DNA from: Streptomyces sp. NBC_01571
Lineage (GTDB): Bacteria; Actinomycetota; Actinomycetes; Streptomycetales; Streptomycetaceae
NCBI RefSeq assembly: GCF_026339875.1
Contig: NZ_JAPEPZ010000001.1
Span: 3,162,001-3,226,000, forward strand
Reading direction: 5' to 3'
Length of the DNA stretch: 64,000 bases
Part shown: positions 14,382 through 53,533 of the stretch, piece after piece
Position numbering within the stretch: position 1 is the first letter of the stretch
Layout: each line of letters starts with the position of its first letter
Position numbers and translations under genes: made by a program
Notes under the pieces: model-generated
What the model saw: only the letters and a program-made list of their open reading frames with translations
The model's database searches: none
What the model was told of the DNA's origin: nothing

Positions 14382-15763
14382 CGGGGGGTGTGTCCTTCCA
14401 CCAGTTTCAGGAGCGCGGCCAGGTCGTCCGGCCGGGTGTGGGGGTTGAGGAGGGTGGCTTTGAGCCAGAGGCGGTCGTCGAGCCGGGCGCGGCCGAGGAC
14501 GGCGCGGCCGTCGTGGAGGAGGGTGCGGCGTACGGCGGCGACGGCTTCGTCGGAGGCCCCGGCGGGCCGGAACAGGACGGTGCTGAGGGTGGGTGGGGCG
14601 TGGAGTTCCAGGCCGGGGCGGGCGGCGATCAGGTCGGCGAGCTCGGTGGCTCGGGCGCAGACGTGGTCGACGAGTGCGCCGAGGCCTGTGCGGCCGAGGG
14701 TCTTGAGGGTGACGGCGATCTTGAGGATGTCGGGTCGTCGGGTGGTGCGCAGGGAGCGGCCGAGGAGGTCGGGGAGTCCGGCTTCGGTGTCGTCGTCGGC
14801 GTTGAGGTAGTCGGCCTGGTGTCGCAGTGCGGCGAGGTCGTGGGGGTCCCGTACGGCGAGGAGGCCTGCGGCGATGGGCTGCCAGCCGAGTTTGTGCAGG
14901 TCGAGGGTGACGGTGTGGGCGCGGTCGAGTCCGTCGAGTGCGGCCCGGTGGCGGTCGCTGAAGAGGAGGCCTCCGCCGTAGGCGGCGTCGATGTGGAGGC
15001 GGGCGCCGTGGGTGGCGCAGACGTCGGCGAGGTCGGGCAGGGGGTCGATGAGTCCGGCGTCGGTGGTGCCGGCGGTGGCGGCGACGAGGAGGGAGCCGCG
15101 GGGGCCTCGGAGCGTGGTGAGGGCTTCGTCGAGGGCTACGGGGTCCATGGTGCCGGCGGGGGCGGGGACGACGACGGGGTCGGGCAGGCCGAGCAGCCAG
15201 GCGGCGCGAGGCAGTGAGTGGTGGGCGTTGGCGCCGTGGACGAGCCGGACGCCGTTGTGTGCTTCTCGGGCGAGGAGTACGGCGAGTTGGTTGGATTCGG
15301 TGCCGCCGGTGGTGACGAGGGCGGTGGCGGTGTGCGGCTCGTTCGCCGTTCCGTAGACCTCCGCGGCGAGGGCGGTGGTCACGAGGGATTCGAGTTCCGA
15401 GGCGGCCGGTGCCTGGTCCCAGGAGTCCAGGGACGGGTTGAGGACGGAGGCGGCGAGGTCGGCGGCGGTGGCGACGGCGAGGGGCGGGCAGTGGAGGTGG
15501 GCGGCGCACAGGGGGTCGGCGGGGTCGGCGGAGCCTTCGGCGAGGGCGTGGACGAGGGTGCGCAGGGCGTCGTCGGTTCCGTGCCGGGGAAGGATGTCGC
15601 CGGCCGCGTCCCGTAGGCGTCGGGCGACGTTCTCGGGTCCTCCGGCGGGCAGGGGGCCGCCGCGTGCGGTGCTGCCGGTGCGCAGCGCGTCGAGCACGGT
15701 GTCGAGCAGTGGCCGCAGTGCGCCGGGGCCTTCGGGACCTGAGGCGAGGGGCGGCGTGCTCAT
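14378..15763 (-). CDS. Pyridoxal-phosphate-dependent group II amino acid decarboxylase (DesA-like)
   Basis: A 461-residue PLP enzyme. The PLP region shows TTGGTESNQLAVLLAR, the aspartate in LHIDAAYGGGLL and the Schiff-base lysine in LDLHKLGWQP. Its length and layout match lysine/diaminobutyrate decarboxylases of siderophore clusters. I use ATG 15763, which has GGAGG 6-7 nt ahead. It is the first gene of a two-gene operon with the N-monooxygenase. I saw no good DmdR1/IdeR iron box upstream, so iron control is unproved. DABA decarboxylase is the alternative specificity. Confidence 0.88.
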   Translation of the reverse strand: MSTPPLASGPEGPGALRPLLDTVLDALRTGSTARGGPLPAGGPENVARRLRDAAGDILPRHGTDDALRTLVHALAEGSADPADPLCAAHLHCPPLAVATAADLAASVLNPSLDSWDQAPAASELESLVTTALAAEVYGTANEPHTATALVTTGGTESNQLAVLLAREAHNGVRLVHGANAHHSLPRAAWLLGLPDPVVVPAPAGTMDPVALDEALTTLRGPRGSLLVAATAGTTDAGLIDPLPDLADVCATHGARLHIDAAYGGGLLFSDRHRAALDGLDRAHTVTLDLHKLGWQPIAAGLLAVRDPHDLAALRHQADYLNADDDTEAGLPDLLGRSLRTTRRPDILKIAVTLKTLGRTGLGALVDHVCARATELADLIAARPGLELHAPPTLSTVLFRPAGASDEAVAAVRRTLLHDGRAVLGRARLDDRLWLKATLLNPHTRPDDLAALLKLVEGHTPR

Positions 15764-27336: not shown

Positions 27337-28290
27337 TCAGCGGCCTCCCACCTGCTCCCCCGCCGCGACGCCCGCTCCCGCTCCGTACACCGCGCCGGGT
27401 TCCTCCGCGCGCGCCAGGAGTTCCAGGGCCGTCTCACCGGCCTCGGAGGGGCTGCGGCGGGCTCCGCTGTCCGCGCCCGGTCCCGGCCGCCAGCCCTCCA
27501 TGACGGTGATGCGGCCCCCCTCGGTCTCGAAGACGCGTCCGGTGACGCCGGCGCTCGCGTCCGCCCCCAGCCACACGACCAGCGGCGACACGTTCGCGGG
27601 CGCCATCGCGTCGAAGGAACCGGCGTCCGGGGCCGCCATCTCCTGGGCGAAGGCACGTTCCGTCATCCGGGTGCGTGCCGCGGGCGCGATCGCGTTGACC
27701 TGGACGCCGTAGCGCCCCAACTCGGCGGCGGCGACCAGGGTCAGCCCGATGATCCCGGCCTTGGCCGCGCTGTAGTTGCCCTGCCCGAGCGAGCCCAGCA
27801 GACCGGCCCCGCTGCTCGTGTTGACGACCCTGGCGCGCGGCGTCCGCCCCGCCTTCGCCTCGGCCCGCCAGTGCGCCGCCGCGTGCTTCAGAGGCAGGAA
27901 GTGTCCCTTGAGGTGGACGCGCAGGACGGCGTCCCAGTCCTCCTCGTCGAGGTTGACGAGCATCCGGTCGCGCAGGAAACCCGCGTTGTTGACGAGGGTG
28001 TCGAGGCGTCCGTACGTGTCCAGGGCGGTGCGCACCAGGGACGCGGCACCCTCGGTGGTGGCGACGTCGCCACGGTGGGCCACCGCTTCGCCGCCCGCCG
28101 CGCGGATCTCCGCCACGACCCGCGCGGCCGGGCCGTCCGCACCCGGGGAGCCGTCCAGCCCGACCCCGAGGTCGTTCACGACGATCCGCGCGCCCTCGGC
28201 GGCGTACGCGAGCGCGTGCGCCCGGCCGAGTCCGCGCCCCGCGCCGGTGACGATCACGACCCGTTCCCGGCACAACAGCGGTCCGCTCAT
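27337..28290 (-). CDS. Short-chain dehydrogenase/reductase of the HIP catabolic cluster (Rv3548c-like)
   Basis: A 317-residue SDR. The Rossmann nucleotide site is VTGAGRGLGRAHALAYAAEGA, then VVNDLG, LVNNAG near residue 95 and the active site with Ser in NTSSGAG and YSAAK (Tyr-xxx-Lys). The protein resembles the larger multifunctional-enzyme-type SDRs acting on hydroxyacyl-CoA. It is second in a two-gene minus-strand operon with another SDR, a 1-nt gap apart, and divergent from echA20, as are Rv3548c and Rv3549c in M. tuberculosis. The likely substrate is a bicyclic steroid-derived CoA thioester; that is inferred from position. Confidence 0.82.
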   Translation of the reverse strand: MSGPLLCRERVVIVTGAGRGLGRAHALAYAAEGARIVVNDLGVGLDGSPGADGPAARVVAEIRAAGGEAVAHRGDVATTEGAASLVRTALDTYGRLDTLVNNAGFLRDRMLVNLDEEDWDAVLRVHLKGHFLPLKHAAAHWRAEAKAGRTPRARVVNTSSGAGLLGSLGQGNYSAAKAGIIGLTLVAAAELGRYGVQVNAIAPAARTRMTERAFAQEMAAPDAGSFDAMAPANVSPLVVWLGADASAGVTGRVFETEGGRITVMEGWRPGPGADSGARRSPSEAGETALELLARAEEPGAVYGAGAGVAAGEQVGGR

Positions 28291-28291
28291 C

Positions 28292-29080
28292 TCAGTCCTC
28301 CTGGTAGGTCGGATCGGCCCGGTTGACGGTCGCGGCGTCGAGGAAGGCGGGCCGCTCCCCTCCCCCGTGGACGAGGAGCGAGGCCCCGCTGATGTAGGCC
28401 GCGGCGTCCGAGGCGAGGAAGACGGCGGCCTCGCCGACATCGGACGGGTCGGCGAGACGGCCGAGCGGGACGGTCCGGGAGACGGCGGCGACGCCGTGCT
28501 CGCCGCCGTAGTGGAGGTGGGACAGCTCTGTGCGGACCATGCCGACGACCAGGGTGTTGACCCTGATGTCGGGGGCCCACTCGACGGCCATCGAACGGGC
28601 CAGGTTCTCCAGGCCCGCCTTGGCCGCCCCGTACGCCGCCGAACCGGGCGACGGGCGTGTCCCGCTCACACTGCCGATCATCACGATCGAGCCCCCGGCC
28701 CGTCTGAGGTGCGCGTACGCGGCGAGCGACGCGGTCAGCGGCGCGACGAGGTTGAGCTCGATCACGCGCGCGTGCCGGTCGGCGCCGGCCTCGGCCAGGG
28801 GCCGGTACGGGGCGCCGCCGGCGTTGTTGACCAGGACGTCGAGCCGGGGCAGCGCATCGAAGAAGGTGTGCACGGCGGGCGGGTCGCGCAGGTCGACCGG
28901 GGTGAACTCCGTCCCCGCGACGGGCACTTCGGGGGGTCTGCGGGCGCAGACCAGCACTTTCGCGCCCGCCCTGACGAAGGCCCGCGCGATCCCGGCCCCG
29001 ACCCCGCGGGTCCCGCCGGTGACGACTACGGTCCGCCCGCCGAGATCCATGCCGCCGTCCGTGCCGTCCACGTTGTCCAC
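28292..29080 (-). CDS. Short-chain dehydrogenase/reductase of the HIP catabolic cluster (Rv3549c-like)
   Basis: A 262-residue SDR with cofactor motif VVVTGGTRGVGAGIARAF, VNNAGG and catalytic YGAAK with a Ser in IGSVSG. The GTG at 29080 has GGGAGG 5 nt upstream; ATG 29050 is an alternative. It is the first gene of the leftward operon whose promoter region shares the operator at 29126-29145 with echA20. The specific reaction of this SDR pair has not, to my knowledge, been settled even in mycobacteria. Confidence 0.82.
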   Translation of the reverse strand: MDNVDGTDGGMDLGGRTVVVTGGTRGVGAGIARAFVRAGAKVLVCARRPPEVPVAGTEFTPVDLRDPPAVHTFFDALPRLDVLVNNAGGAPYRPLAEAGADRHARVIELNLVAPLTASLAAYAHLRRAGGSIVMIGSVSGTRPSPGSAAYGAAKAGLENLARSMAVEWAPDIRVNTLVVGMVRTELSHLHYGGEHGVAAVSRTVPLGRLADPSDVGEAAVFLASDAAAYISGASLLVHGGGERPAFLDAATVNRADPTYQED

Positions 29081-29125
29081 AGGGCCTCCCGCGCGGATGC
29101 ATTCGCTGCTAGCTTCGAGACTGCA

Positions 29126-29145
29126 CCTAACAAACGTTTGGTGGG
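29126..29145. promoter_or_regulatory. KstR2-like operator A
   Basis: The 20-mer CCTAACAAACGTTTGGTGGG has a palindromic core CAAACGTTTG. It lies between the divergent SDR and echA20 genes, 19 bp from the echA20 start. It matches 17 of 20 positions of the site at 36054-36073 read on the other strand. The mycobacterial KstR2 motif (AnCAAGnnCTTGnT) is similar in shape. Confidence 0.7.
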
Positions 29146-29163
29146 AAGGTAGCTGATGCGTCC

Positions 29164-30081
29164 ATGGGTGTCTCCACCTCGTCCCCGGAAAAACGGATCT
29201 CCGTCGTCACGGTCGACTTCCCGCCGGTGAACGCGCTGCCGGTGCGCGGCTGGTTCGACCTCGCCGACGCCGTGCGCGCCGCGGGCCGCGACCCCGGAGT
29301 CCGGTGTGTCGTCCTGACGGCCGCCGGGCGCGGTTTCAACGCGGGTGTGGACATCAAGGAGATGCAGCGGGAGGCCCTGGAGACCGGGGGCCACCACGCG
29401 CTCGTCGGGGCGAACCGCGGCTGCTTCGAGGCCTTCGCCGCGGTCTACGAGTGCGAGGTGCCGGTCGTCGCGGCGGTCCACGGATTCTGTCTGGGCGGCG
29501 GGATCGGACTGGTGGGGAACGCGGACGTGATCGTGGCGAGCGAGGACGCCACCTTCGGCCTGCCCGAGCTGGACCGCGGCGCCCTCGGCGCGGCCACCCA
29601 CCTGGCCCGTCTGGTCCCGGGGCACCTGATGCGCGCGCTGTACTACACCGCGCGTACGGCGACCGCGGCCGAGCTGCACGCGCACGGCTCGGTGTGGAAG
29701 GTCGTACGGCGGGCGGAGCTCCAGGAGGCCGCCTTGGAGCTGGCCCGCGAGATTGCCGCCAAGGACGGCGAGTTGATCAGGCTCGCCAAGGCCGCTCTCA
29801 ACGGCATCGACCCCGTGGACGTCCGTCGCAGCTACCGCTTCGAACAGGGCTTCACCTTCGAGGCGAACCTCAGCGGAGTGGCCGATCGCGTCCGCGACAC
29901 GTTCGGCCGAGAGGCCCCGGAGGCGGCCACGCGGGCCGCCGGCACCCCGCCGCGCGAGGCACACGGGGCACACCAGGCACACCACGAACCCGAGGAGCAC
30001 GGGAACCACGGCAACCACGGGAACCACGGGAACCACGGGAACCACGGGCGAGAGTACGGGAATCGGGAGGCCGCCCAGTGA
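29164..30081 (+). CDS. echA20: EchA20-like crotonase (ring D hydrolase of the steroid HIP pathway), with His/Gly-rich tail
   Basis: A 305-residue crotonase. Residues 1-250 match EchA20: TVDFPPVNALPVRGWFDLADAV, the oxyanion segment GRGFNAGVDIKEMQRE, HGFCLGGGIGLVGNADVIVASEDATFGLPELDRGALGAATHL, and the end SYRFEQGFTFEANLSGVAD. EchA20 opens ring D of the bicyclic CoA thioester. Known homologues end near residue 247. Here 50 more residues follow, rich in His and ending in five GNH triplets (30001-30048). GTGA overlap with ipdA. Read from an ATG 19 bp after operator A, with no strong ribosome site. Confidence 0.85.
   Translation: MGVSTSSPEKRISVVTVDFPPVNALPVRGWFDLADAVRAAGRDPGVRCVVLTAAGRGFNAGVDIKEMQREALETGGHHALVGANRGCFEAFAAVYECEVPVVAAVHGFCLGGGIGLVGNADVIVASEDATFGLPELDRGALGAATHLARLVPGHLMRALYYTARTATAAELHAHGSVWKVVRRAELQEAALELAREIAAKDGELIRLAKAALNGIDPVDVRRSYRFEQGFTFEANLSGVADRVRDTFGREAPEAATRAAGTPPREAHGAHQAHHEPEEHGNHGNHGNHGNHGNHGREYGNREAAQ
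30001..30048. repeat. In-frame 9-bp tandem repeat encoding GNH units
   Basis: Five copies of GGGAACCAC (the second is GGCAACCAC) followed by GGG. Encodes GNHGNHGNHGNHGNHG at the C-terminus of the EchA20-like protein. The low divergence suggests recent slippage. Confidence 0.85.
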
Positions 30082-30935
30082 GCGACAAGACCATGTCGGC
30101 GGACGAGGCCGTCGCCCGTCTCGCGAGCGGGATGACGCTGGGCATCGGCGGCTGGGGTTCGCGCCGCAAGCCGATGGCCCTGGTCAGAGCGCTGCTCCGG
30201 ACGGGGATCACTGATCTCACCGTCGTGTCGTACGGCGGCCCGGACGTCGGTCTGCTCGCCGCCGCCGGACGGATCCGCAAGCTGGTCACCGCCTTCACCA
30301 CCCTCGACTCCATCCCGCTCGAACCGCACTACCGCGCGGCGCGCGAGAGCGGCGCCTTCGAGCTGACGGAGGTCGACGAGTCGATGTTCATGTGGGGTCT
30401 GCACGCCGCCGCGAACCGGCTCCCCTTCCTGCCGGTGCGCGCCGGTCTCGGCTCGGACGTGATGCGGGTCAACCCCGGCCTGCGGACCGTGACCTCCCCG
30501 TACGAGGACGGGGAGACGTTCGTCGCCATGCCCGCTCTCCGCCTGGACGCGGCCCTGGTCCACATGAACCGCGCGGACCGCGCGGGCAACGGCCAGTATC
30601 TGGGCCCGGACCCGTACTTCGACGACCTGTTCTGCGAGGCGGCCGACACGGCGTACGTCTCCTGCGAGCAGCTCGTCGACCATCTCGGCACCGCCGCGCT
30701 CAGCAAGGAGGCCGCGCCGCAGACACTGCTGCTGAGCCGGTCGAGCGTGACGGGCGTCGTCGAGACGCCGAACGGCGCGCACTTCACCTCCTGCGCCCCC
30801 GACTACGCGCGCGACGAACCCTTCCAGAAGCTGTACGCGACCACACCGTACGACCGGTTCGCCGAGCGCTTCCTCGCCGGTGACGAAGAGGCGTACCAGT
30901 CCGCCGTGCGGACCTGGCACAAGGAGCGGCGATGA
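30078..30935 (+). CDS. ipdA: IpdA-like alpha subunit of the COCHEA-CoA hydrolase
   Basis: A 285-residue class I CoA-transferase-fold subunit (Mtb IpdA is 292). The glycine-rich GMTLGIGGWGSRRKPMALVRALLR near residues 18-41 and the GAHFTSCAPDYGRD-like segment near 245 are typical of IpdA. The acidic stretch ELTEVDESM at about 95-103 holds the expected catalytic Glu. IpdAB is not a transferase but hydrolyses the last carbocycle (ring C) in HIP degradation. The GTG at 30078 overlaps the echA20 stop; the end overlaps ipdB (ATGA). Confidence 0.88.
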   Translation: MSDKTMSADEAVARLASGMTLGIGGWGSRRKPMALVRALLRTGITDLTVVSYGGPDVGLLAAAGRIRKLVTAFTTLDSIPLEPHYRAARESGAFELTEVDESMFMWGLHAAANRLPFLPVRAGLGSDVMRVNPGLRTVTSPYEDGETFVAMPALRLDAALVHMNRADRAGNGQYLGPDPYFDDLFCEAADTAYVSCEQLVDHLGTAALSKEAAPQTLLLSRSSVTGVVETPNGAHFTSCAPDYARDEPFQKLYATTPYDRFAERFLAGDEEAYQSAVRTWHKERR

Positions 30936-31705
30936 GCCCGGTCCCCGCGGTCACCCGCGCCGAGTACTGCGTGATCGCCTGCGCCGAGGCCTGGCGGGGC
31001 GACGGCGAGGTGCTCGCCAGCCCCATGGGCACGATCCCTTCCATCGGCGCCCGTCTCGCCAGGCGCACCTTCTCCCCCGACCTGCTGATGACCGACGGCG
31101 AGGCCCTGCTGGTCGGCCTCGACGGCACCCCCGAGGGCTGGCTGCCGTACCGCCGGCACCTCACCGCGGTGACCGGCGGACGCCGGCACGTGATGATGGG
31201 CGCGAGTCAGATCGACCGCTTCGGCAACCAGAACATCTCCTGCGTCGGCGACTGGGCCCGGCCGCGGCGCCAACTGCTCGGCGTGCGCGGAGCGCCGGTC
31301 AACACCCTTAACAATCCGACCAGTTACTGGATCCCGAAGCACTCCCGGCGGGTCTTCGTCGAGCGGGTCGACATGGTGTGCGGGGTGGGGTACGACCGGG
31401 CGGCCGCCGCGGGCCCGAGCGCCACCCGCTTCCACCGCATCCCGCGCGTGGTGAGCGACCTCGGCGTCCTCGACTTCGCCACGCCCGACCACTCCATGCG
31501 CCTGGCCTCACTGCATCCGGGCGTCACCGTGGAGGAGGTGCGGGAGGCCACGGGCTTCGAGCTGTGCGTGCCCGCCGATGTGCCGTACACCCGCGAACCG
31601 ACCGCGCTGGAGCTGGAGTTGATCCGCACCGTGATCGATCCGGGCGCCGACCGGGACCGCGAGGTCGCGGGGCCGGCCCCGCGCGCCGGAGAGGCCGGGC
31701 GCTGA
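30932..31705 (+). CDS. ipdB: IpdB-like beta subunit of the COCHEA-CoA hydrolase
   Basis: A 257-residue partner subunit (Mtb IpdB is 250). Typical segments are ASPMGTIPSIGARLARRTFSPDLLMTDGEA, MMGASQIDRFGNQNIS and LNNPTSYWIPKHSRRVFVERVDMV. It starts at ATG 30932 in a four-base overlap with ipdA and shares one base with the ipdC start (TGATG), so the three are translationally coupled. The order echA20-ipdA-ipdB-ipdC equals that in M. tuberculosis and Rhodococcus. Confidence 0.88.
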   Translation: MSPVPAVTRAEYCVIACAEAWRGDGEVLASPMGTIPSIGARLARRTFSPDLLMTDGEALLVGLDGTPEGWLPYRRHLTAVTGGRRHVMMGASQIDRFGNQNISCVGDWARPRRQLLGVRGAPVNTLNNPTSYWIPKHSRRVFVERVDMVCGVGYDRAAAAGPSATRFHRIPRVVSDLGVLDFATPDHSMRLASLHPGVTVEEVREATGFELCVPADVPYTREPTALELELIRTVIDPGADRDREVAGPAPRAGEAGR

Positions 31706-32841
31706 TGGAGACCGCGCTCACCCGTCTCGTCGGCGTCCGTCACCCGGTCGTGCAGACCGGCATGGGGTGGGTCGCGGGGCCCCGGCTGGTCTCCGCCACG
31801 GCGAACGCGGGAGCGCTGGGCATCCTGGCCTCCGCGACGATGACCCTCGACCACCTGCGGGACGCGGTGCGGGAGGTCAGGTCCCGTACGGACGCGCCGT
31901 TCGGGGTGAATCTGCGGGCCGACGCGGGGGACGCGGGCGAGCGGGTGCGGATCATCGTCGAGGAGGGCGTGCGGGTCGCGTCGTTCGCGCTCGCGCCCTC
32001 CCGTGAGCTGATCGCCGAGCTGAAGGAGGCGGGGGTGGTCGTCGTGCCCTCCGTCGGGGCGCGCCGGCACGCGGAGAAGGTGGCCGGGTGGGGCGCGGAC
32101 GCGGTGATCGTGCAGGGCGGCGAGGGCGGCGGACACACCGGCGAGGTGGCGACGACGGTGCTGCTGCCGCAGGTGGTGGACGCCGTGGACATCCCGGTGG
32201 TGGCGGCGGGCGGTTTCCACGACGGGCGGGGGCTGGTCGCGGCGCTGGCCTACGGGGCGGCGGGCATCGCGATGGGGACGCGTTTCCTGCTCACCTCCGA
32301 CTCCACCGTCCCGGACGCGGTGAAGGCGGCGTATCTGGCGGCCGCCGTCGGGGACGTCACGGTCACGAGAGCCGTCGACGGACTGCCGCACCGCATGCTG
32401 CGTACGGAGTTCGTCGGCTCCCTGGAGCGGGCCGGCCGTGCGCGGGCGCTCGTCCGGGCGGTGCGCCGGGCGGCGGCCTTCCGGCGGGTGTCCGGTCTCT
32501 CCTGGCCCCGGATGGTCCGTGACGGCCTCGCCATGAGGCACGGCAGGGACCTGACCTGGAGCCAGGTGCTGCTGGCCGCGAACACGCCGATGCTGCTCAA
32601 GGCGGCGATGGTGGACGGGCGTACGGATCTGGGGGTGATGGCGTCGGGGCAGGTCGCGGGGGTGATCGAGGATCTGCCGTCCTGCGCGGAGCTGGTCGAG
32701 GGGCTGATGGCGCAAGCGGGGGCGGTTCTCCGGGGGCTTCCCGCACACCCCGGGTGTACGCACCCCGGTGTACAGCCGGCGCATGACCGAGACGCCGGGC
32801 ATCCGCGAGGCCCGTGCCCGGCCGGCCGAAATCCTCAGTAG
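31705..32841 (+). CDS. ipdC: IpdC-like flavin enzyme (nitronate monooxygenase fold)
   Basis: A 378-residue NPD-type FMN protein. Motifs: HPVVQTGMGWVAGPRLVSATANAGALGILASATMT, FGVNLRADA, VVPSVGARRHAEKVAGWGADAVIVQGGEGGGHTG, AAGGFHDGRGL and AMGTRFLLTSDS. IpdC is thought to oxidise the hydroxylated bicyclic CoA ester before ring opening. The match ends at about residue 345 (IEDLPSCAELVEGLM). The last 33 residues (from GLPAHPGCTHP) look unlike the family and run into the antitoxin remnant, as if the native end was lost. Confidence 0.85.
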   Translation: METALTRLVGVRHPVVQTGMGWVAGPRLVSATANAGALGILASATMTLDHLRDAVREVRSRTDAPFGVNLRADAGDAGERVRIIVEEGVRVASFALAPSRELIAELKEAGVVVVPSVGARRHAEKVAGWGADAVIVQGGEGGGHTGEVATTVLLPQVVDAVDIPVVAAGGFHDGRGLVAALAYGAAGIAMGTRFLLTSDSTVPDAVKAAYLAAAVGDVTVTRAVDGLPHRMLRTEFVGSLERAGRARALVRAVRRAAAFRRVSGLSWPRMVRDGLAMRHGRDLTWSQVLLAANTPMLLKAAMVDGRTDLGVMASGQVAGVIEDLPSCAELVEGLMAQAGAVLRGLPAHPGCTHPGVQPAHDRDAGHPRGPCPAGRNPQ

Positions 32842-32911
32842 CCCCGGGGCCGAGGGGTAACCACGGTGATCATCCCGCCGAGGCGGACGCCCCCTCGCTG
32901 CCGCGGCCTGA
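32783..32911 (+). pseudogene. Remnant of a Phd/YefM-type antitoxin gene
   Basis: ATG 32783 reads MTETPGIREARARPAEIL, the usual opening of Phd/YefM antitoxins (MTE-IREAR-LAE). It then hits a stop at 32858. In neighbouring frames TVII (32863-32874) and RRGGRPLAAAA (32876-32908) continue the family pattern TVITRRGRPVAAVV, so at least two small indels broke the gene. It overlaps the tail of ipdC. No toxin is recognisable next to it. Confidence 0.45.
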
Positions 32912-32974
32912 GCGGCCCGGCGAACCTGCGTGGGGCAGAGCGCGCACGCGGGGCACCGACGACGTGCCTTCGCG

Positions 32975-33050
32975 CCGCAGAGGCGCAGAGGCGCAGAGGC
33001 GCGGAGGCGCGGAGGCGCAGAGGCGCAGAGGCGCAGAGGCGCAGACGCAG
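32975..33050. repeat. 8-bp tandem repeat, nine units
   Basis: Nine near-perfect units of GCGCAGAG (two read GCGCGGAG, the last GCGCAGAC) run head to tail. The spacing and unit length exclude CRISPR. It separates the antitoxin remnant from the TetR fragment. The rest of the 32842-33366 gap holds only those remnants. Confidence 0.85.
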
Positions 33051-33072
33051 TGCGCTTTCCAGGGCACAGCGT

Positions 33073-33366
33073 CTCCGCCTCCTGGGCGGTGAGGCGCCCG
33101 GTCGCGATGTGTGCCGCGGCGGTGTGCTGGAGCCCGAGGACGGCGGCGAGCCAGTCCGGGGGAAGTGCCGGGTCGAAGTCGCCCGTGTGCCGGCCTCGCC
33201 GGATGAGCCGTTCGAGCCGCACGGGCGCGAAGTCATGGGGGTCGTCGTCGGGCCGCGGATCCCGGCCGCCGATGCGTTCCGCACGAGGGGATAGCGGACG
33301 AGGAACCGCCGGCCCGCGCCGAGGAACCGGGCCAGGGCATCCGAGCGGTGTCCGGCGCGAGCGCGG
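33073..33366 (-). pseudogene. C-terminal fragment of a TetR-family regulator, frameshifted
   Basis: On the minus strand, right after the fadA6 stop, one frame reads DALARFLGAGRRFLVRYPLVRNA. After a frame change near 33265 another reads VRLERLIRRGRHTGDFDPAL, PPDWLAAVLGLQHTAAAHIA and TGRLTAQEAETL. Both are typical of the ligand domain of small TetR regulators. There is no N-terminal DNA-binding half, and the end merges into the 8-bp repeat. It is not a piece of the intact kstR2. Confidence 0.5.
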
Positions 33367-34524
<1,158 letters not shown>

Positions 34525-34546
34525 GACCACTCCTCCGCAGACGGGG

Positions 34547-35158
34547 CTAGGGACGTACGGAGATCCCGTCCAGCACCATCGACAGGTACTGCCGGGCGAT
34601 CTCCTCCGGGCTGTGCTGTCCGCCGGGCCGGTACCAGGACGCGGCGACCCAGACGGTGTCGCGCACGAACCGGTAGGTGAGCCGGATGTCGAGGTCGGAC
34701 CGGAAGGCCTCGGCGGTGACGCCGCGCTCCAGCGTGGTCAGCCACGCCTTCTCGAAGTTGCGCTGCGATTCCGCGAGGAACGCGAAGCGCTGCTGGGCGG
34801 CGAGGTGCCGGGACTCCTTCTGGTAGATCGCGACGGCGGCCCGGTGCCGGTCGATCTCCCGGAAGGACTCGGTGACCAGGGCCTCCAGGGTTTCCCGGGG
34901 GCCGAGTTCGGCGGCGAGGACGGTGTCGTAGCCGTCCCAGAGCTCGTCGAGGAAGGTCCGCAGGATCTCTTCCAGCATCGATTCCTTGGAGTCGAAGTGG
35001 TAGTAGAGACTGCCCGCGAGCATCCCGGCCTGGTCCGCGATCCTGCGTACGGTGGTGGCGTTGTAGCCCTGCTCGGCGAAGACCTCGGCGGCGAGGCCGA
35101 GGAGTTCACGGCGGCGCTCCGGGGTGGCGGTCACCTGGGGCTTCTTCTTGGTAGGCAC
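34547..35158 (-). CDS. kstR2: TetR-family repressor, KstR2-like
   Basis: A 203-residue regulator. The HTH is RRRELLGLAAEVFAEQGYNATTVRRIADQAGMLAGSLYYHFDSKESMLEEI. The ligand domain shares long stretches with KstR2 (AVAIYQKESRHLA, LTYRFVRDTVWVAASWYRPGG, EEIARQYLSMVLDGI). KstR2 represses the HIP genes and is released by HIP-CoA. Starts at GTG 35158. It lies between ipdF and fadA6, as in M. tuberculosis where the regulator sits near fadA6 and the ipdF gene. Its probable targets are operators A and B. Confidence 0.85.
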   Translation of the reverse strand: MPTKKKPQVTATPERRRELLGLAAEVFAEQGYNATTVRRIADQAGMLAGSLYYHFDSKESMLEEILRTFLDELWDGYDTVLAAELGPRETLEALVTESFREIDRHRAAVAIYQKESRHLAAQQRFAFLAESQRNFEKAWLTTLERGVTAEAFRSDLDIRLTYRFVRDTVWVAASWYRPGGQHSPEEIARQYLSMVLDGISVRP

Positions 35159-35248
35159 CGGTCCATTGTGATGCCGGTGCCGCGGCAGGAGACGTCTGCC
35201 CGTGAAGGAGCGGCGTCCGGGCGGACGACGGGACTTTCGCGACCCGCC

Positions 35249-36040
35249 CTAGGCATGCTGGCTGCTGACGGCGACGACCTCACCGGTCATGTACGAGGAG
35301 TAGCCGGACGCCAGGAACACGATCACGTTGGCCACCTCCCAGGGTTGCGCGTACCGGCCGAAGACCTCACGGCCCGTCAGTTCCGCCAGCAGTTCGGGGG
35401 TGGTCACCTTCGCCAGGTGCGGGTGCATGGCGAGACTTGGGGACACCGCGTTGACCCGGACCCCGTAGGCGGCAGCCTCGATCGCGGCGCAGCGGGTGAG
35501 CGCCATGACCCCGGCCTTGGCGGCGGCGTAGTGCGCCTGGCCCGCCTGGGCGCGCCAGCCGACGACGGAGGCGTTGTTCACGATCACGCCGCCGCCGGCC
35601 TGCTCCTTGAAGCGCCGCAGTGCGGCGCGGGTGCACCGGAAGGTGCCGCCCAGGGTCACGTCGAGGACCTTCGACCACTGTGCGTCGGTCATGTCGACCA
35701 GGGCCGAGGTGCCGCCGAGACCCGCGTTGTTGACGACGACGTCCAGTCCGCCGTGGAGGTCGTCCGCCCGCGCGAACAGGGCCTCCACCTGTCCTTCGTC
35801 CGTCACGTCGCAGGGCAGCGCGGAGACGTTCCCGGCGCCGAACTCGGCGGCCAGGGCTTCCTCGCTCTCGTTCAGGCGGCGCAGGTGCGCGTCGCTGATG
35901 ACCACCCGCGCGCCCTCCTCCAGGAGCCTGCGCGCCGTGGCTCCGCCGATGCCCGCGCCCGCGGCGGCCGTGACGACGGCCGTGCGTCCCCTCAGCAGTC
36001 CGTGCCCCGGTTCGTAGGCGGGAGTCTCGACGTCGCTCAT
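35249..36040 (-). CDS. ipdF: IpdF-like short-chain dehydrogenase
   Basis: A 263-residue SDR closely following IpdF: GHGLLRGRTAVVTAAAGAGIGGATARRLLEEGA, VISDAHLRRL, LVNNAGLGG, NNASVVGWRAQAGQAHYAAAKAGVMALTRC, and the end SSYMTGEVVAVSSQH. The unusual AAAG-GIG cofactor loop is a mark of this subgroup. IpdF reduces or oxidises the ring hydroxyl/keto group of HIP-CoA-type intermediates. It is first in a leftward operon, with its ATG 13 bp from operator B. Confidence 0.87.
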   Translation of the reverse strand: MSDVETPAYEPGHGLLRGRTAVVTAAAGAGIGGATARRLLEEGARVVISDAHLRRLNESEEALAAEFGAGNVSALPCDVTDEGQVEALFARADDLHGGLDVVVNNAGLGGTSALVDMTDAQWSKVLDVTLGGTFRCTRAALRRFKEQAGGGVIVNNASVVGWRAQAGQAHYAAAKAGVMALTRCAAIEAAAYGVRVNAVSPSLAMHPHLAKVTTPELLAELTGREVFGRYAQPWEVANVIVFLASGYSSYMTGEVVAVSSQHA

Positions 36041-36053
36041 ACCGCCAAGCTAA

Positions 36054-36073
36054 CCTACCAAACACTTGTTAGG
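36054..36073. promoter_or_regulatory. KstR2-like operator B
   Basis: The minus-strand reading CCTAACAAGTGTTTGGTAGG matches operator A at 17 of 20 positions and 13 of 14 positions of the KstR2 consensus (ACCAAACACTTGTT on the plus strand). It lies in the 60-bp divergent gap between ipdF and fadE31. In both operators a TAGCT- hexamer follows the GTTTGGT side, a possible -10 element. Confidence 0.72.
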
Positions 36074-36100
36074 GAAGCTCGCCGTCGAGAGGTCACGTCG

Positions 36101-37240
36101 ATGGATCTCACGCACTCCCCCGCCGACGAGGCGTTCCGCGCCGAGGTCCGGGCCTGGCTCGGTGCCCATGTGCCGAGCGTCCCGCTGCCCTCTTTGGAGA
36201 CCGAGGAGGGTTTCGCCGCCCACCGCGCGTGGGAGGCCGAACTGGCCGCGGACCGCTGGTCGGTGGTGTCCTGGCCCGCGGCGTACGGCGGCCGGGACGC
36301 GGACATCGTGCGCTGGCTGGTGTTCGAGGAGGAGTACTACGCGGCGGGCGCGCCGGGCCGTGTCACCCAGAACGGCATCAACCTGCTGGCGCCCTCCCTC
36401 TTCGAGCACGGCACACCGCGGCAGCGGGCCCGGGTGCTGCCCTCCATGGCCACCGGTGAGGTCGTCTGGGCACAGGCCTGGTCCGAGCCGGAGGCCGGGT
36501 CCGACCTGGCGTCCCTCACCTCCCGCGCGGTGCGCGCCGAAGGGGGCTGGCTGCTGAGCGGCCAGAAGACCTGGTCGTCGCGTGCCGCCTTCGCCGATCG
36601 CGCGTTCGGACTGTTCCGCAGCGACCCCGACACGCCGAAACCCCACCAGGGGCTGACCTATCTGATGTTCGGCCTGCGGGCGCCCGGGGTCACGGTCCGG
36701 CCGATCGGCCGCCTCGACGGGAAGCCGGCCTTCGCCGAGATCTTCCTGGACGAGGTCTTCGTCCCCGACGAGGACGTGATCGGCGAGCCCGGCCAGGGCT
36801 GGCGGATCGCCATGTCGACGGCGGGCGACGAACGCGGGCTGCGGCTCCGCTCCCCCGGCCGCTTCCTGGCCGCCGCGGACCGGCTGTTCGCCCTGTGGCG
36901 GAGCCGGGACAGCCCGGCGTGGGCCGCGGACCGGGTGGCGGACGCGCTGATCGGCGCCCGCGCGTACCAGTTGTTCGCCTACGCCCACGCCTCCCGCCTC
37001 CTCGACGGCGGGAGCATCGGCCCGGAGGCCAGTCTGAACAAGGTCTTCTGGTCCGAGTACGACATCGCGCTGCACGAGACCGCGCTCGATCTCCTGGGCC
37101 AGGAGGGCGAGACGGCGGACACGGACTGGTCCGAGGGGTACGTGTTCTCCCTCGCCGGCCCGATCTACGCCGGCACGAACGAGATCCAGCGCGACATCGT
37201 CGCCGAGCGCCTGCTCGGCCTCCCGAAGGGCCGTCGCTGA
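36101..37240 (+). CDS. fadE31: FadE31-like acyl-CoA dehydrogenase
   Basis: A 379-residue acyl-CoA dehydrogenase (Mtb FadE31 is 377). Matching segments are WPAAYGGRDADIVRWLVFEEEYYAAGAPGR, WAQAWSEPEAGSDLASL (flavin site), GWLLSGQKTWSSRA, and the C-terminal GPIYAGTNEIQRDIVAERLLGLP. The FadE31 type, not FadE30, is suggested by the EEEYYAAGAPGR and SPGRFLAAADRL segments. The start follows GAGAGG. It shares one base with the next gene. In the pathway, FadE31 and FadE32 form a heteromeric dehydrogenase acting on a late linear CoA intermediate. Confidence 0.82.
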   Translation: MDLTHSPADEAFRAEVRAWLGAHVPSVPLPSLETEEGFAAHRAWEAELAADRWSVVSWPAAYGGRDADIVRWLVFEEEYYAAGAPGRVTQNGINLLAPSLFEHGTPRQRARVLPSMATGEVVWAQAWSEPEAGSDLASLTSRAVRAEGGWLLSGQKTWSSRAAFADRAFGLFRSDPDTPKPHQGLTYLMFGLRAPGVTVRPIGRLDGKPAFAEIFLDEVFVPDEDVIGEPGQGWRIAMSTAGDERGLRLRSPGRFLAAADRLFALWRSRDSPAWAADRVADALIGARAYQLFAYAHASRLLDGGSIGPEASLNKVFWSEYDIALHETALDLLGQEGETADTDWSEGYVFSLAGPIYAGTNEIQRDIVAERLLGLPKGRR

Positions 37241-38208
37241 TGCGCTTCCTCCTCGATGCCGAACAGCGCGCGTTCGCCGGCTCCCTCGACGCGATGCTGA
37301 CGGCCGCGGACACGCCGTCGGTCGTACGGGACTGGAGCCGGGGCGAGCACGGCAGCGGCCGTGCGCTGTGGTCCCGGGTCGCCGAGGCGGGCGTGTTCGC
37401 GCTGGCGGTGCCGGCCGCCCACGCGGGACTGGGCCCGCTGCCGGTGGAACTGGCCGTGGGCTTCGTCGAGCTGGGGCGGCACGCGGTGCCGGGTCCGTTG
37501 GCGGAGACGGTCGCGGCGGCCGCCCTGCTGGCGGAGCTGGCGGACCCCGGCCCCGCGGAGCGGCTGCTTCCGGCACTGCTCTCGGGCGAGGCGTCGGCGA
37601 CCCTGGCCCTCGACGGTTCGTACGCGCTGGACGGCGACGCGGCGACCGTCCGCCTCGCCCTGACCGCCGGCGGACTGCGTCTGGCCCCCGGCCACGGCCC
37701 GGTCCGCGCCTGTCTGGACCCCGCCCGCCGCCTCACCCCGCTGACGGCGGGCGGCGAACTCCTGTCCACCGCGCCCCCCGTGGAACACGCCCTCACCTGG
37801 GCCCGGCTCGCCACCGCCGCCCAGGCCCTGGGTGTCGGTCTCACGCTCCTCGACCGGACGGTCGCCCACGTCCGGCGCCGCACCCAGTTCGGTGTCCCCG
37901 TCGGCTCCTTCCAGGCCGTCAAGCACCGGCTCGCCGACGCGAGGACGGCCCTGGAGTTCGCGCGCCCGCTGCTCTTCGGAGCGGCCCTGACCATGGCACC
38001 CGCCGATGTCGCCGCCGCCAAGGTCACCGCCTGCGAGGCGGCGTACGCCACCGCGCGCGCCGCACTCCAGCTGCACGGCGCGATCGGCTACACCGCCGAG
38101 TACGACCTGTCGCTGTGGCTGGCCAGGGCCCGCGCCCTGCGCACCGCCTGGGGCGGCCCGGCCGAGTGCCGGGCGGCCGTCCTCAGTGGTCGTGCCGCTC
38201 GCCCGTGA
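37240..38208 (+). CDS. fadE32: FadE32-like acyl-CoA dehydrogenase subunit
   Basis: A 322-residue, shorter dehydrogenase subunit (Mtb FadE32 319, FadE33 318). The N-terminal half is divergent; the C-terminal half has the flavin and tetramer motif LLDRTVAHVRRRTQFGVPVGSFQAVKHRLADA and ALQLHGAIGYTAEYDLSLWLARAR. Such short subunits pair with a full-length partner, here FadE31. FadE33 is the alternative name. TGATG coupling to fadE31. The last 26 bp overlap the convergent cytochrome b gene. Confidence 0.8.
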   Translation: MRFLLDAEQRAFAGSLDAMLTAADTPSVVRDWSRGEHGSGRALWSRVAEAGVFALAVPAAHAGLGPLPVELAVGFVELGRHAVPGPLAETVAAAALLAELADPGPAERLLPALLSGEASATLALDGSYALDGDAATVRLALTAGGLRLAPGHGPVRACLDPARRLTPLTAGGELLSTAPPVEHALTWARLATAAQALGVGLTLLDRTVAHVRRRTQFGVPVGSFQAVKHRLADARTALEFARPLLFGAALTMAPADVAAAKVTACEAAYATARAALQLHGAIGYTAEYDLSLWLARARALRTAWGGPAECRAAVLSGRAARP

Positions 38209-39862
38209 TCTCCCGGTACTCCTCGGCCGTCGGCTTCGGGATCTGCGTACCGGGCCCGTACATGGCCCGCGCCAGCCGGGCACGCAGCCTGCGGCCGGGG
38301 CCGACACGGCGGACGACGCCGTTCGCGTCGACGAGCGGGCCGACCTCGTACGGCGGCGGCTGCTCGTGCTGGGTGAGCGTGAACCGTTGCGCGGGCGAGA
38401 GCGGTTCGTGGACCTCCACGTACTCGCCGTGCGGCAGCCGCCGGATCATCCCCGACTCCCTTCCGTGCAGCACCTTTTCGTGGTCCCTTCGCTGAAGTCC
38501 CAGGCAGATCCGCCGGGTGAGGACGAAGGCGAGCGCGGGCGCGACGAAGACGGCGACGCGGACGAACCAGGTGATCGCGTTGATGGAGAGGTGGAAGTGG
38601 GTGGCCCAGAGGTCGTTGCCGCCGCCGACCAGCAGCACTCCGTACAGCGTCAGCCAGGCGACACCGAGCCCGGTGCGGGTGGGAACGTTGCGCGGCCGGT
38701 CCAGGATGTGGTGCTCGCGCCGGTCCCCGGTGATCCACGCCTCGACGAACGGATACACGGCGATGGCGGTCATGATGAGCGGGAAGAGCGAGAACGGGAT
38801 GAAGACGCCCAGTTGGAGGGTGTGGCCCCAGGCGTTGATCTCCCATCCCGGCATCACCCGGATCAGGCCCTCGGAGAACCCGAGATACCAGTCGGGCTGC
38901 GCGCCGGTCGTCACCAGGTCCGGCCGGTAGGGCCCGAAGGCCCAGACCGGGTTGATGGTCGCGACCGCCCCCATGATCGACAGCACCCCGAAGACCAGGA
39001 AGAAGAACCCGCCCGCCTTCGCCATGTAGACCGGCATGAACGGCATGCCGACGACCGACTTCTGGTCCCGTCCGGGGCCTGGGTACTGCGTGTGCTTGTG
39101 GTAGAAGACCAGGATCAGATGGGCGACCACCAGTCCCAGCATGATCCCCGGCAGCAGCAGGACGTGGATCGGGAAGAAGCGCGGGATGATGTCGTGGCCG
39201 GGGAACTCCCCTCCGAAGAGGAAGAAGGAGAGGTACGTCCCCACGACCGGGACCGACAGGATCGCGCCCTGGGCGAAGCGGACGCCGGTGCCGGAGAGCA
39301 GGTCGTCGGGGAGCGAGTAGCCGGTCAGTCCGGTGATGAGGCCGAGCATCAACAGGGTCCAGCCGAAGAGCCAGTTGACCTCACGCGGCTTGCGGAAGGC
39401 GCCGGTGAAGAAGACCCGCATCATGTGCACGAGCATCCCGGCGAGGAAGACGAGCGCCGCCCAGTGGTGGATCTGCCGGATCAGCAGGCCGCCGCGCACG
39501 TCGAAGCTGATGTCCAGCGTGGACTCGTACGCCCGGGTCATGGTGATGCCGTCGAGCGGTGTGTAGGAGCCGTGGTAGACGACCTCGGCCGCGCTCGGCT
39601 CGAAGAAGAGCGTCAGGTAGACGCCGGTCAGGATCAGGACCAGGAAGCTGTAGAGGCAGACCTCTCCGAGCATGAAGGACCAGTGGTCCGGGAACACCTT
39701 GCGCAGATTGGCCCTGGCCAGCGCGTACAGCCCGAGCCGCCCGTCGGCCCAGTCCGCCAGCCGCTCGCCCCGGCCGGCCGCGTCGCCCCGGCCGGCCGCC
39801 GTTTCCCGGGCACCCCCCGAAGTGTCCTCGTTCTGGCCGGAGTTGCTCTCTCGCACGTCCAT
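38183..39862 (-). CDS. Orphan cytochrome b (QcrB-like) of a bc complex
   Basis: A 559-residue membrane protein of actinobacterial QcrB length. The N-terminal 45 residues are hydrophilic. Transmembrane helices carry two paired heme-ligand sets: IRQIHHWAALVFLAGMLVHMM and FFPIHVLLLPGIMLGLVVAHLILV. A Qo-site PDWYLGFSEG segment (PEWY-type) follows. The long cytosolic tail is typical of actinobacteria. No qcrA, qcrC or oxidase gene is adjacent, so this is a second, stand-alone copy. ATG 39862 has GGGGAG ahead. Its 3' end overlaps fadE32 by 26 bp. Confidence 0.87.
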   Translation of the reverse strand: MDVRESNSGQNEDTSGGARETAAGRGDAAGRGERLADWADGRLGLYALARANLRKVFPDHWSFMLGEVCLYSFLVLILTGVYLTLFFEPSAAEVVYHGSYTPLDGITMTRAYESTLDISFDVRGGLLIRQIHHWAALVFLAGMLVHMMRVFFTGAFRKPREVNWLFGWTLLMLGLITGLTGYSLPDDLLSGTGVRFAQGAILSVPVVGTYLSFFLFGGEFPGHDIIPRFFPIHVLLLPGIMLGLVVAHLILVFYHKHTQYPGPGRDQKSVVGMPFMPVYMAKAGGFFFLVFGVLSIMGAVATINPVWAFGPYRPDLVTTGAQPDWYLGFSEGLIRVMPGWEINAWGHTLQLGVFIPFSLFPLIMTAIAVYPFVEAWITGDRREHHILDRPRNVPTRTGLGVAWLTLYGVLLVGGGNDLWATHFHLSINAITWFVRVAVFVAPALAFVLTRRICLGLQRRDHEKVLHGRESGMIRRLPHGEYVEVHEPLSPAQRFTLTQHEQPPPYEVGPLVDANGVVRRVGPGRRLRARLARAMYGPGTQIPKPTAEEYREITGERHDH

Positions 39863-53526: not shown

Positions 53527-53533
53527 TTCGGGC

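What the first reader, a model, noticed from the sequence alone, without database searches (positions are those of the whole stretch)
27337..38208. A KstR2-type HIP (steroid rings C/D) catabolic cluster in a Streptomyces chromosome
Eleven genes match the mycobacterial/rhodococcal KstR2 regulon in identity and mostly in order: two SDRs divergent from echA20-ipdA-ipdB-ipdC, then fadA6-kstR2-ipdF divergent from fadE31-fadE32. Steroid ring degradation is not a usual Streptomyces trait. Several neighbours on each side look like Streptomyces core genes, which suggests an acquired or selectively kept island. No Mce4, KshAB or HsaABCD genes lie in the window.
Basis: partly seen in the sequence, partly recalled or inferred. 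Interest (0 to 1): 0.75.

Follow-up and report, generated by a model that had tools for sequence, protein, structure and literature searches.

The report
Headless steroid-ring catabolic cluster in Streptomyces
Eleven neighbouring genes match the enzymes and switch that other bacteria use to break the last two rings of steroids, yet this soil bacterium lacks the genes tested for breaking the first two rings, so it probably eats leftovers released by other microbes; most Streptomyces sampled carry the same half-pathway.

Summary
All eleven genes at 27337-38208 match, in identity and order, the KstR2 (HIP, steroid rings C/D) regulon of an unnamed mycobacterial-type genome (44-68% identity). IpdA keeps the catalytic Glu, IpdB the hydrolase-type Gly. 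Both divergent promoters carry KstR2-type operators; one keeps 19 of 20 core bases of an EMSA-proven M. tuberculosis site.

The reading 'unusual trait, acquired island' does not hold. IpdB orthologues occur in 136 of 199 sampled Streptomyces, under purifying selection. What is unusual is that the pathway is headless. HsaC, KshA, KstD and Mce4 were not found in this genome, and HsaC/KshA occur in only 17/18 of the 199. The cluster also lacks fadD3, fadE30 and fadE33, the first two being HIP's entry steps. It retains the enzymes that Crowe et al. used to turn 5-OH-HIC-CoA into MOODA-CoA. A FadD3-family ligase and a FadE30-family dehydrogenase lie 1.6 Mb away and are gained or lost largely together with the ipd cluster.

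Best reading: a KstR2-controlled ring-C/D module kept after loss of the ring-A/B half, to scavenge HIP-type acids released by other steroid degraders. The substrate is inferred, not shown.

The parts
27337..28290 (-). SDR1, Rv3548c-type short-chain dehydrogenase
   Evidence: 64% to the G566 gene in the same place; NCBIfam PRK07791 subfamily over cut-off; start at ATG 28290 with AGGAGG
28292..29080 (-). SDR2, Rv3549c-type short-chain dehydrogenase
   Evidence: 56%; PRK07856 equivalog over cut-off
29129..29142 (.). KstR2-type operator 1, AACAAACGTTTGGT, between SDR2 and echA20
   Evidence: same place as the KstR2 site of MSMEG_6000/6001 and Rv3549c/3550 (PMC3068626 passages); over 30 bases it is not close to any of the three M. 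tuberculosis probes (at most 16 of 30)
29164..30081 (+). echA20, ring-D-opening crotonase
   Evidence: 67%; PRK07938 equivalog over cut-off
30078..30935 (+). ipdA, ring-C hydrolase alpha subunit
   Evidence: 54%; best PDB hits 6co6/6coj/6con, E 7e-93; catalytic Glu kept, residue 101
30932..31705 (+). ipdB, ring-C hydrolase beta subunit
   Evidence: 54%; best PDB hit 6co6_B, E 1e-88; TDGEA with Gly56 = Gly57 of RHA1 IpdB
31705..32841 (+). ipdC, NMO/FabK-like flavin enzyme (5-OH-HIC-CoA to HIEC-CoA step)
   Evidence: 68%; PF03060
33367..34530 (-). fadA6, beta-ketothiolase
   Evidence: 66%; PRK07801 equivalog over cut-off
34547..35158 (-). kstR2, TetR-family repressor
   Evidence: 51%; best PDB hits 2ibd and KstR2 4w97/4w1u, E 2e-66 and 4e-56
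35249..36040 (-). ipdF, SDR acting on the 5-oxo/5-hydroxy group
   Evidence: 63%; PRK07831 equivalog over cut-off
36057..36070 (.). KstR2-type operator 2, ACCAAACACTTGTT, between ipdF and fadE31
   Evidence: 36049-36068 matches 19 of 20 bases (23 of 30 over the full probe) of the EMSA-positive Rv3560c/Rv3561 site
36101..37240 (+). fadE31, acyl-CoA dehydrogenase
   Evidence: 60%
37240..38208 (+). fadE32, acyl-CoA dehydrogenase (MOODA-CoA step)
   Evidence: 44%; Pfam ACAD domains

Best explanation
The cluster is the KstR2-controlled module that opens steroid rings D and C. IpdF and IpdC turn 5-OH-HIC-CoA into HIEC-CoA, EchA20 hydrolyses ring D, IpdAB hydrolyses ring C, FadA6 thiolyses to MOODA-CoA, and FadE31/32 dehydrogenate that on the way to central metabolism. 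KstR2 sits on two divergent operators that can cover all eleven genes and is presumably released by a HIP-type CoA ester. The ring A/B half and HIP's own entry genes (fadD3, fadE30) are not at the locus, so the cell most likely scavenges HIP-type hydrindane acids that other steroid or bile-acid degraders release. Entry is most likely by the FadD3-family ligase and FadE30-family dehydrogenase at a second, unlinked locus (G000 C1 4.78-4.82 Mb). Shown here: gene identity, order, operator-like sites, no match for four upstream-pathway markers (HsaC, KshA, KstD, Mce4) genome-wide, purifying selection, co-inheritance with the second locus. Inferred: enzyme activities (by orthology), HIP as the substrate, second-locus entry, cross-feeding.
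For: Orthology and order of 11 of 11 genes. IpdA Glu and IpdB Gly kept. Two operators: in 77 named loci with a readable gap before echA20 the first is exact in 71 and one off in 6; in 58 with a readable ipdF-fadE31 gap the second is exact in 56 and one off in 2; 0 of 135 single-base shuffles reach an exact match. A pattern drawn from the two sites occurs nowhere else in the 11.5 Mb genome. Kept enzymes include those used in vitro from 5-OH-HIC-CoA to MOODA-CoA (PMC5380842). HsaC, KshA, KstD, Mce4 not found. 118 of 136 IpdB+ Streptomyces have neither HsaC nor KshA. dN/dS 0.10-0.26. Second locus: FadD3 equivalog 807 bits against cut-off 657; co-occurrence (both, ipd only, other only, neither) ipd/FadD3 130-6-3-60, ipd/FadE30-like 134-2-4-59 of 199; nine independent pairs: FadD3 same way in 6.8, opposite 0, tie 2.2; FadE30-like 8.0, 0, 1.0. 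A streptomycete grown on HIP accumulated MOODA (Hashimoto and Hayakawa 1977, as cited in PMC5380842).
Against: No activity or growth was measured. The FadD3/FadE30 copies at the second locus are old paralogues, not the cluster genes moved: the second-locus FadD3 clade is separate from cluster and mycobacterial FadD3 (the cluster clade itself is weakly supported, 81/72), and FadE30-like is sister to all cluster FadE30 in the tree. They have no exact operator upstream, unlike fadD3 in mycobacteria; the one site in 80 kb within one mismatch lies inside the ligase gene. The second locus also holds Ltp2- and ChsH2-like genes, which suggests a different upstream substrate. Six IpdB+ genomes lack the FadD3 match. 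With linked genomes dropped the FadD3 pairing is only p about 0.06. No HIP importer was looked for. The operator pattern is not more frequent in the genome than its reversed control (3 rows against 5); only its position is telling, and the CAAG form of the published motif was not searched genome-wide. I saw no passage saying that wild-type degraders release HIP itself; the passages speak of cholate intermediates and ADDs.
Confidence: 0.6

Rival explanations
1. The ring-opening module serves a non-steroid substrate, such as a plant or bacterial terpenoid with a methylhydrindane or cyclohexane core. The unlinked FadD3/FadE30/Ltp2/ChsH2-like locus trims it to a HIC-CoA-like ester that enters at IpdF/IpdC.
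For: fadD3 and fadE30 are missing from the cluster while the ring-opening enzymes stay. The second locus has an Ltp2-like 'lipid-transfer protein' thiolase (585 bits, cut-off 469), ChsH2-type OB-fold proteins, a crotonase and ACADs, in the same order in three other genomes, and is co-inherited with the ipd cluster.
Against: The core of operator 2 is almost unchanged from the mycobacterial one, and the same C/D genes sit in full steroid clusters of other Streptomyces. No such substrate is known to me.
Confidence: 0.25
2. The genome does degrade steroids, by a ring A/B route not covered by HsaC/KshA/KstD (2,3-seco, oestrogen 4,5-seco, or very divergent enzymes).
For: Only four markers were tested genome-wide. 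The 2,3-seco route also converges at HIP (PMC8399759 passages).
Against: The KstD search gave only short FAD-motif matches of at most 25.5 bits; no HsaC at E <= 1e-50, no KshA at E <= 1e-60, no Mce4_CUP1.
Confidence: 0.1
3. A decaying relic of an ancestral complete pathway.
For: The cluster tree, rooted on mycobacterial-type sequences, puts some full clusters outside the stripped ones, so the upper half looks lost (quick tree, some labels uncertain because stretches end).
Against: All eleven ORFs are intact; median dN/dS 0.10-0.26; operators conserved; IpdB present in 136 of 199 genomes.
Confidence: 0.04
4. Recently acquired steroid-degradation island, as the first reader leaned to.
For: None specific. 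One related copy is on a 2.8 Mb linear plasmid of Streptomyces sp. BHT-5-2.
Against: Shared flanks, GC like the flanks, wide presence in the genus.
Confidence: 0.01

Closest known systems
KstR2 regulon / HIP catabolic cluster of M. tuberculosis (Rv3548c-Rv3564), M. smegmatis (MSMEG_5999-6017) and R. jostii RHA1
   Same: Same eleven genes in the same order and divergence (tested against the unnamed mycobacterial-type genomes G566 and G438); KstR2-type sites in the two matching promoters; IpdA Glu and IpdB Gly kept.
   Different: No fadD3, fadE30 or fadE33 in the cluster; no site within two mismatches just upstream of kstR2, so two operators instead of three; no ring A/B genes found in the genome by the markers tested.
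HIP cluster of Steroidobacter denitrificans (no fadD3 in the cluster, a homologue elsewhere; PMC5380842 Discussion)
   Same: C/D cluster without fadD3, with a FadD3-family ligase elsewhere.
   Different: That organism degrades steroids; here the ring A/B markers were not found and fadE30 is missing too.
Full steroid clusters of a minority of Streptomyces (e.g. G161, G103, G076, G162)
   Same: Orthologous C/D core. In G161 and G103 the whole also sits beside gltD, as the stripped cluster does in the window; in G098 fadE30, kshA and hsaC lie 17-44 kb from gltD.
   Different: Those carry kshA, hsaC and fadE30 near the C/D genes. Streptomyces sp. NRRL F-4489 (L067) has kshA, fadE30 and fadE33 there; its hsaC was not in the 20.7 kb seen. 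In G012 HsaC lies 5.4 Mb from KshA and IpdB.

Membership tests
KstR2-type HIP cluster | echA20, ipdA, ipdB, ipdC, fadA6, kstR2, ipdF, fadE31, fadE32 and two SDRs in conserved order | tested here: met
   11 of 11 in order
KstR2-type HIP cluster | KstR2 operator (AnCAAGnnCTTGnT type) in the divergent promoters | tested here: met
   Variant sites AACAAACGTTTGGT and ACCAAACACTTGTT, 2 and 1 mismatches to the published consensus; conserved in named Streptomyces loci. Binding not tested.
KstR2-type HIP cluster | fadD3 (HIP-CoA synthetase) and fadE30 in the regulon | tested here: not met
   No FadD3 match in the window; FadE30 and FadE33 match only the fadE31 and fadE32 genes, at 38 and 34%. Family members at 4.78 and 4.81 Mb, without an exact operator
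IpdAB hydrolase (not a CoA transferase) | catalytic Glu in IpdA; Gly in place of the transferase Glu in IpdB | tested here: met
   IpdA Glu101 aligns with the residue changed to Ala in 6coj (that this is the catalytic E105A mutant is recalled); IpdB Gly56 = Gly57
KstR2 repressor | best solved relative is KstR2; ligand is HIP-CoA | tested here: inconclusive
   Sequence relation met (the top hit 2ibd bears no KstR2 name); ligand not testable here
9,10-seco steroid degrader | KshA, HsaC, KstD in the genome | tested here: not met
Cholesterol degrader | Mce4 uptake system | tested here: not met
   No PF11887 match in the genome. Weak test: no control genome exceeded the cut-off and the reference genome was not searched with it
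FadD3-family ligase (second locus) | NCBIfam FadD3 equivalog cut-off | tested here: met
   807 bits against 657; mycobacterial-type reference 845
HIP-catabolic function | growth on or conversion of HIP | not testable with these tools
   needs culture and CoA-ester analysis

The most novel reading that the evidence does not exclude
About six in ten Streptomyces (118 of 199 sampled) keep a decapitated steroid pathway. A KstR2-controlled ring-C/D module survived loss, perhaps repeated, of the ring-A/B half and works with an unlinked, co-inherited FadD3/FadE30/Ltp2/ChsH2-like locus. Streptomyces would then be widespread second-stage consumers of hydrindane acids, released by steroid degraders or made from an unrecognised terpenoid.
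Probability: 0.4. Interest if true: 0.75.

Novelty: new variant of a known kind. Interest (0 to 1): 0.6.

Why it matters
A genome survey judged 55 of 57 Streptomyces to lack steroid pathways (PMC4810484 passages), yet the marker of the terminal half, IpdB, is in about two thirds of the sampled genus. If it works, HIP-type acids are a public good in soil, steroid mineralisation is split between organisms, and genome-based counts of 'steroid degraders' miss the second-stage consumers. The stripped cluster also marks off which regulon members can be dispensed with: the ring-opening set stays, the entry set goes or is replaced. It gives a genetic system outside pathogens for IpdAB and KstR2, and a concrete open question: what feeds the pathway.

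Tried and rejected
Rejected: acquired island; relic; IpdAB as a plain CoA transferase. Tried: fadD3/fadE30 relocated from the cluster; the trees show old paralogues instead. Tried: KstR2 control of the second locus; no exact site found, one one-mismatch site inside the ligase gene. A protein search with IpdC filled its 8000-candidate limit; of its 120 listed hits those with an organism name are Streptomyces, which only shows that close homologues abound. Considered: loss of FadE30 as a sign that the substrate is side-chain-hydroxylated HIP from 7-hydroxy bile acids, because HIP-CoA ACAD mutants of P. stutzeri Chol1 had no phenotype on them (PMC8399759 passages). An echA13-like gene sits between ipdF/fadE30 and fadE31 in 9 of 67 named loci where both ends are seen (10 of 80 in all), but not in the window (named by place and the description in PMC5380842, not by an orthologue). 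Left open. KshB, HsaA, HsaB, HsaD and CYP125 were searched in the window but not genome-wide; FadE33 was not searched outside the window and fetched loci. No structure was predicted.

Limits: thresholds for presence (IpdB 1e-80, FadD3 1e-100, FadE30 1e-75, HsaC 1e-78, KshA 1e-60) were set after seeing the tables, and presence was copied by hand into. Of one search's 392 genomes only the 199 also used were counted. For HsaC 16 further genomes with weaker matches (39-45% identity) were not counted. The operator consensus used and the pattern were widened or drawn after seeing the window's sites; nine loci with a long ipdF/fadE30-fadE31 gap were set aside. The species tree uses 81 of 199 genomes that I chose (the 36 IpdB-negative ones with listed gltD coordinates plus 45 positives, exceptions included) and one locus pair (gltD plus part of gltB). 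Trees are quick trees. dN/dS used eight chosen named relatives (seven for fadE32, one for echA20). Literature searches; none of these listings showed a paper on an orphan HIP cluster in Streptomyces, but only open-licence papers are held.
Full report
What is there. Gene calling in the window gives eleven genes from 27337 to 38208 in four divergent runs: SDR2-SDR1 (-), echA20-ipdA-ipdB-ipdC (+), ipdF-kstR2-fadA6 (-), fadE31-fadE32 (+). Against a 140 kb stretch of an unnamed mycobacterial-type genome (G566), 11 of 11 match in the same order, 44 to 68% identical. NCBIfam equivalog cut-offs are passed by SDR2, echA20, fadA6 and ipdF and a subfamily cut-off by SDR1; ipdA, ipdB, ipdC, kstR2 and fadE31 pass none. 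IpdA and IpdB hit the solved chains 6co6/6coj/6con far above glutaconate CoA-transferase, and KstR2 hits 2ibd and the KstR2 entries. The alignment shows that IpdA keeps the Glu that is Ala in 6coj (its identity as the E105A mutant is recalled). IpdB has Gly where CoA transferases have the catalytic Glu, one of the features by which Crowe et al. [quoted passage not shown]).

Regulation. The published KstR2 motif is AnCAAGnnCTTGnT (PMC3068626 passages). In the window a two-mismatch scan finds 15 sites against 5.7 expected; what matters is that two of them lie in the two divergent promoters, at 29129 and 36057. In named Streptomyces loci the first site is exact to a widened consensus (CAAA or CAAG) in 71 of 77 and one off in 6. 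The second is exact in 56 of 58 and one off in 2; a further nine loci had a longer gap there and were set aside. None of 135 single-base shuffles reached zero mismatches. These promoters are related sequences, so the counts are not independent. In the whole 11.5 Mb genome the pattern AMCAAANNNTTGKT, drawn from the two sites, occurs at these two places only; the reversed control pattern is as frequent, so the evidence is position, not number. Of the 11 other genomes given to that call, four have one match outside the cluster and two (G159, G161) show only the second site. Bases 36049-36068 equal 19 of 20 bases of the EMSA-positive Rv3560c/Rv3561 probe, 23 of 30 over the whole probe; operator 1 shares at most 16 of 30 with any of the three probes. 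In mycobacteria the Rv3560c/Rv3561 site lies between fadE30 and fadD3; here its counterpart lies between ipdF and fadE31, as if the two genes next to it had dropped out on either side.

What is missing. The regulon normally also holds fadE30, fadD3 and fadE33 (PMC5380842 Table 1, passages). None is in the window: FadD3 gives no match, and FadE30 and FadE33 match only fadE31 and fadE32, at 38 and 34%. Of 67 named loci in which both ipdF and fadE31 are seen, fadE30 is present in two (L067, L080); L022 and L033, whose fetched stretches end before fadE31, have it too. The retained enzymes IpdF, IpdC, EchA20, IpdAB and FadA6 are those with whose relatives Crowe et al. turned synthetic 5-OH-HIC-CoA into MOODA-CoA, and FadE32 acts next. 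So the cluster is the ring-opening part of the C/D pathway.

No head in this genome. With reference proteins from G566, HsaC (no match at 1e-50), KshA (none at 1e-60), KstD (only short FAD-motif matches, at most 25.5 bits) and the Mce4_CUP1 family (none; a weak test, as no control genome passed its cut-off) are not found.

Genus-wide picture. In 199 Streptomyces genomes, IpdB orthologues (E <= 1e-80) are in 136, HsaC (E <= 1e-78) in 17 and KshA in 18; all of these lie among the 136, and 118 of the 136 have neither. Of 80 named loci, 40 show exactly the eleven genes in order and 14 more all but SDR2; the other 26 are cut short, carry extra genes, or lack genes (L052, for example, shows no right half; L060 and L076 no kstR2). 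A 2016 survey found steroid pathways in 2 of 57 Streptomyces (PMC4810484 passages), which agrees with the rarity of the upper half. In the full clusters inspected (G161, G076, G162) the upper genes surround the C/D genes; in G012 HsaC is 5.4 Mb away, and in G175 HsaC and KshA are on a contig other than that of fadE30 and IpdB. In G161 and G103 the full cluster sits beside gltD, as the stripped one does in the window; in others (e.g. G179, G023, G070, G155, G162) the full cluster is elsewhere. A tree of nine concatenated cluster proteins, rooted on mycobacterial-type sequences, puts G179 and G076 with G162, all full, outside the other 78 Streptomyces rows and needs six changes for the nine rows labelled full or fadE30-bearing (quick tree). 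This suits an ancestral full cluster that lost its head, perhaps repeatedly. Purifying selection on the stripped form is plain: median dN/dS 0.10 to 0.26 across the eleven genes against eight chosen relatives (one usable pair for echA20). Stops seen in some SDR1, echA20 and ipdC alignments I take to lie beyond other proteins' ends, which I did not check one by one. The same decoupling exists outside the genus: 16 of 36 non-Streptomyces IpdB-positive genomes show no HsaC at 1e-50.

A second locus. A FadD3-family ligase (G000 C1 4782988-4784601; 807 bits against a cut-off of 657) and a FadE30-family dehydrogenase (4810408-4811565) lie 1.6 Mb from the cluster. They share a region, in the same order in G075, G153 and G161 as far as fetched, with an Ltp2-like thiolase (NCBIfam 'lipid-transfer protein'; the name Ltp2 is my inference), ChsH2-type OB-fold proteins, a crotonase, further ACADs and a TetR regulator. 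They are old paralogues: second-locus FadD3 forms its own clade (98/100) beside mycobacterial (100/99) and Streptomyces cluster FadD3 (81/72), and the FadE30-like clade is sister to all cluster FadE30. Yet they go with the ipd cluster: 130/6/3/60 and 134/2/4/59 (both, ipd only, other only, neither). On a gltD-gltB tree of 81 chosen genomes the ipd trait gives nine independent pairs on supported branches. FadD3 follows in 6.8 and FadE30-like in 8.0 on average, with none the other way (median p 0.016 and 0.008). Dropping genomes in which the gene may be linked to the cluster leaves 4.9 of 7 (none opposite, p 0.06) and 6.9 of 8 (0.1 opposite, p 0.016). This is the strongest pointer to how the headless pathway is fed; it is not proof of HIP as the substrate.

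Mechanism and confidence. I think it most likely that the cell takes up HIP-type acids released by other degraders. Excretion and re-uptake of cholate intermediates by R. jostii RHA1, and cross-feeding on steroid intermediates, are described in PMC8399759 (passages); release of HIP itself by wild-type cells I did not see there. The second-locus enzymes would activate and trim the acid, the CoA ester would release KstR2, and the eleven-gene set would open rings D and C. A streptomycete on HIP was reported in 1977 to accumulate MOODA (cited in PMC5380842; that paper itself was not seen), which shows that the chemistry occurs in a streptomycete; whether that strain had a full cluster is unknown. 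Enzyme identities I hold at about 0.95, the headless state of this genome at about 0.85, HIP-type acids as the physiological substrate at about 0.6, and second-locus entry at about 0.45.

Verdict. The finding is a new variant of a known kind: a widespread, regulated, selectively kept terminal half of steroid catabolism without its head.

Noticed in passing
50801-59073: Four tandem ADP-ribosylglycohydrolase-family genes (PF03747) followed by a PfkB kinase, a type III CoA transferase and an HpcH/HpaI lyase, all on the + strand.
   Followed up: partly
32976-33045: Short tandem array, 8.8 copies of CGCAGAGG, in the 525-bp gap between ipdC and fadA6.
   Followed up: no
12963-15697: Lysine/ornithine N-monooxygenase next to a PLP-dependent decarboxylase, like a hydroxamate-siderophore precursor pair.
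   Followed up: no
7888-8493: A 201-aa ORF whose start (YLLGLYLGDG) recalls homing-endonuclease-type proteins (recalled, not tested) but has no Pfam match at 1e-8.
   Followed up: no
38183-39862: A cytochrome b-type gene converges on fadE32 and overlaps its end by 26 bp; homologues in 23 of 80 named loci.
   Followed up: partly
L146, L147, L153 (G000 C1 4.775-4.835 Mb): Conserved Streptomyces region with FadD3-, FadE30-, Ltp2- and ChsH2-like genes, resembling a steroid side-chain degradation set, of unknown substrate.
   Followed up: partly
L019, L028, L033, L039, L056, L060, L067, L080, L085, L086: An extra crotonase next to ipdF/fadE30, in the place of rhodococcal echA13, proposed in print for hydroxylated HIP from cholate.
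   Followed up: partly
G402, G404, G426, G458, G494, G504, G513, G523: Small (2.8-4.1 Mb, 86-100% complete) non-Streptomyces genomes with IpdB but no HsaC match at 1e-50, so the headless state may not be confined to Streptomyces.
   Followed up: no
L139 (NZ_CP081497.1): A C/D cluster with fadE30 and a fadE33-like gene on a 2.8 Mb linear plasmid of Streptomyces sp. BHT-5-2.
   Followed up: partly
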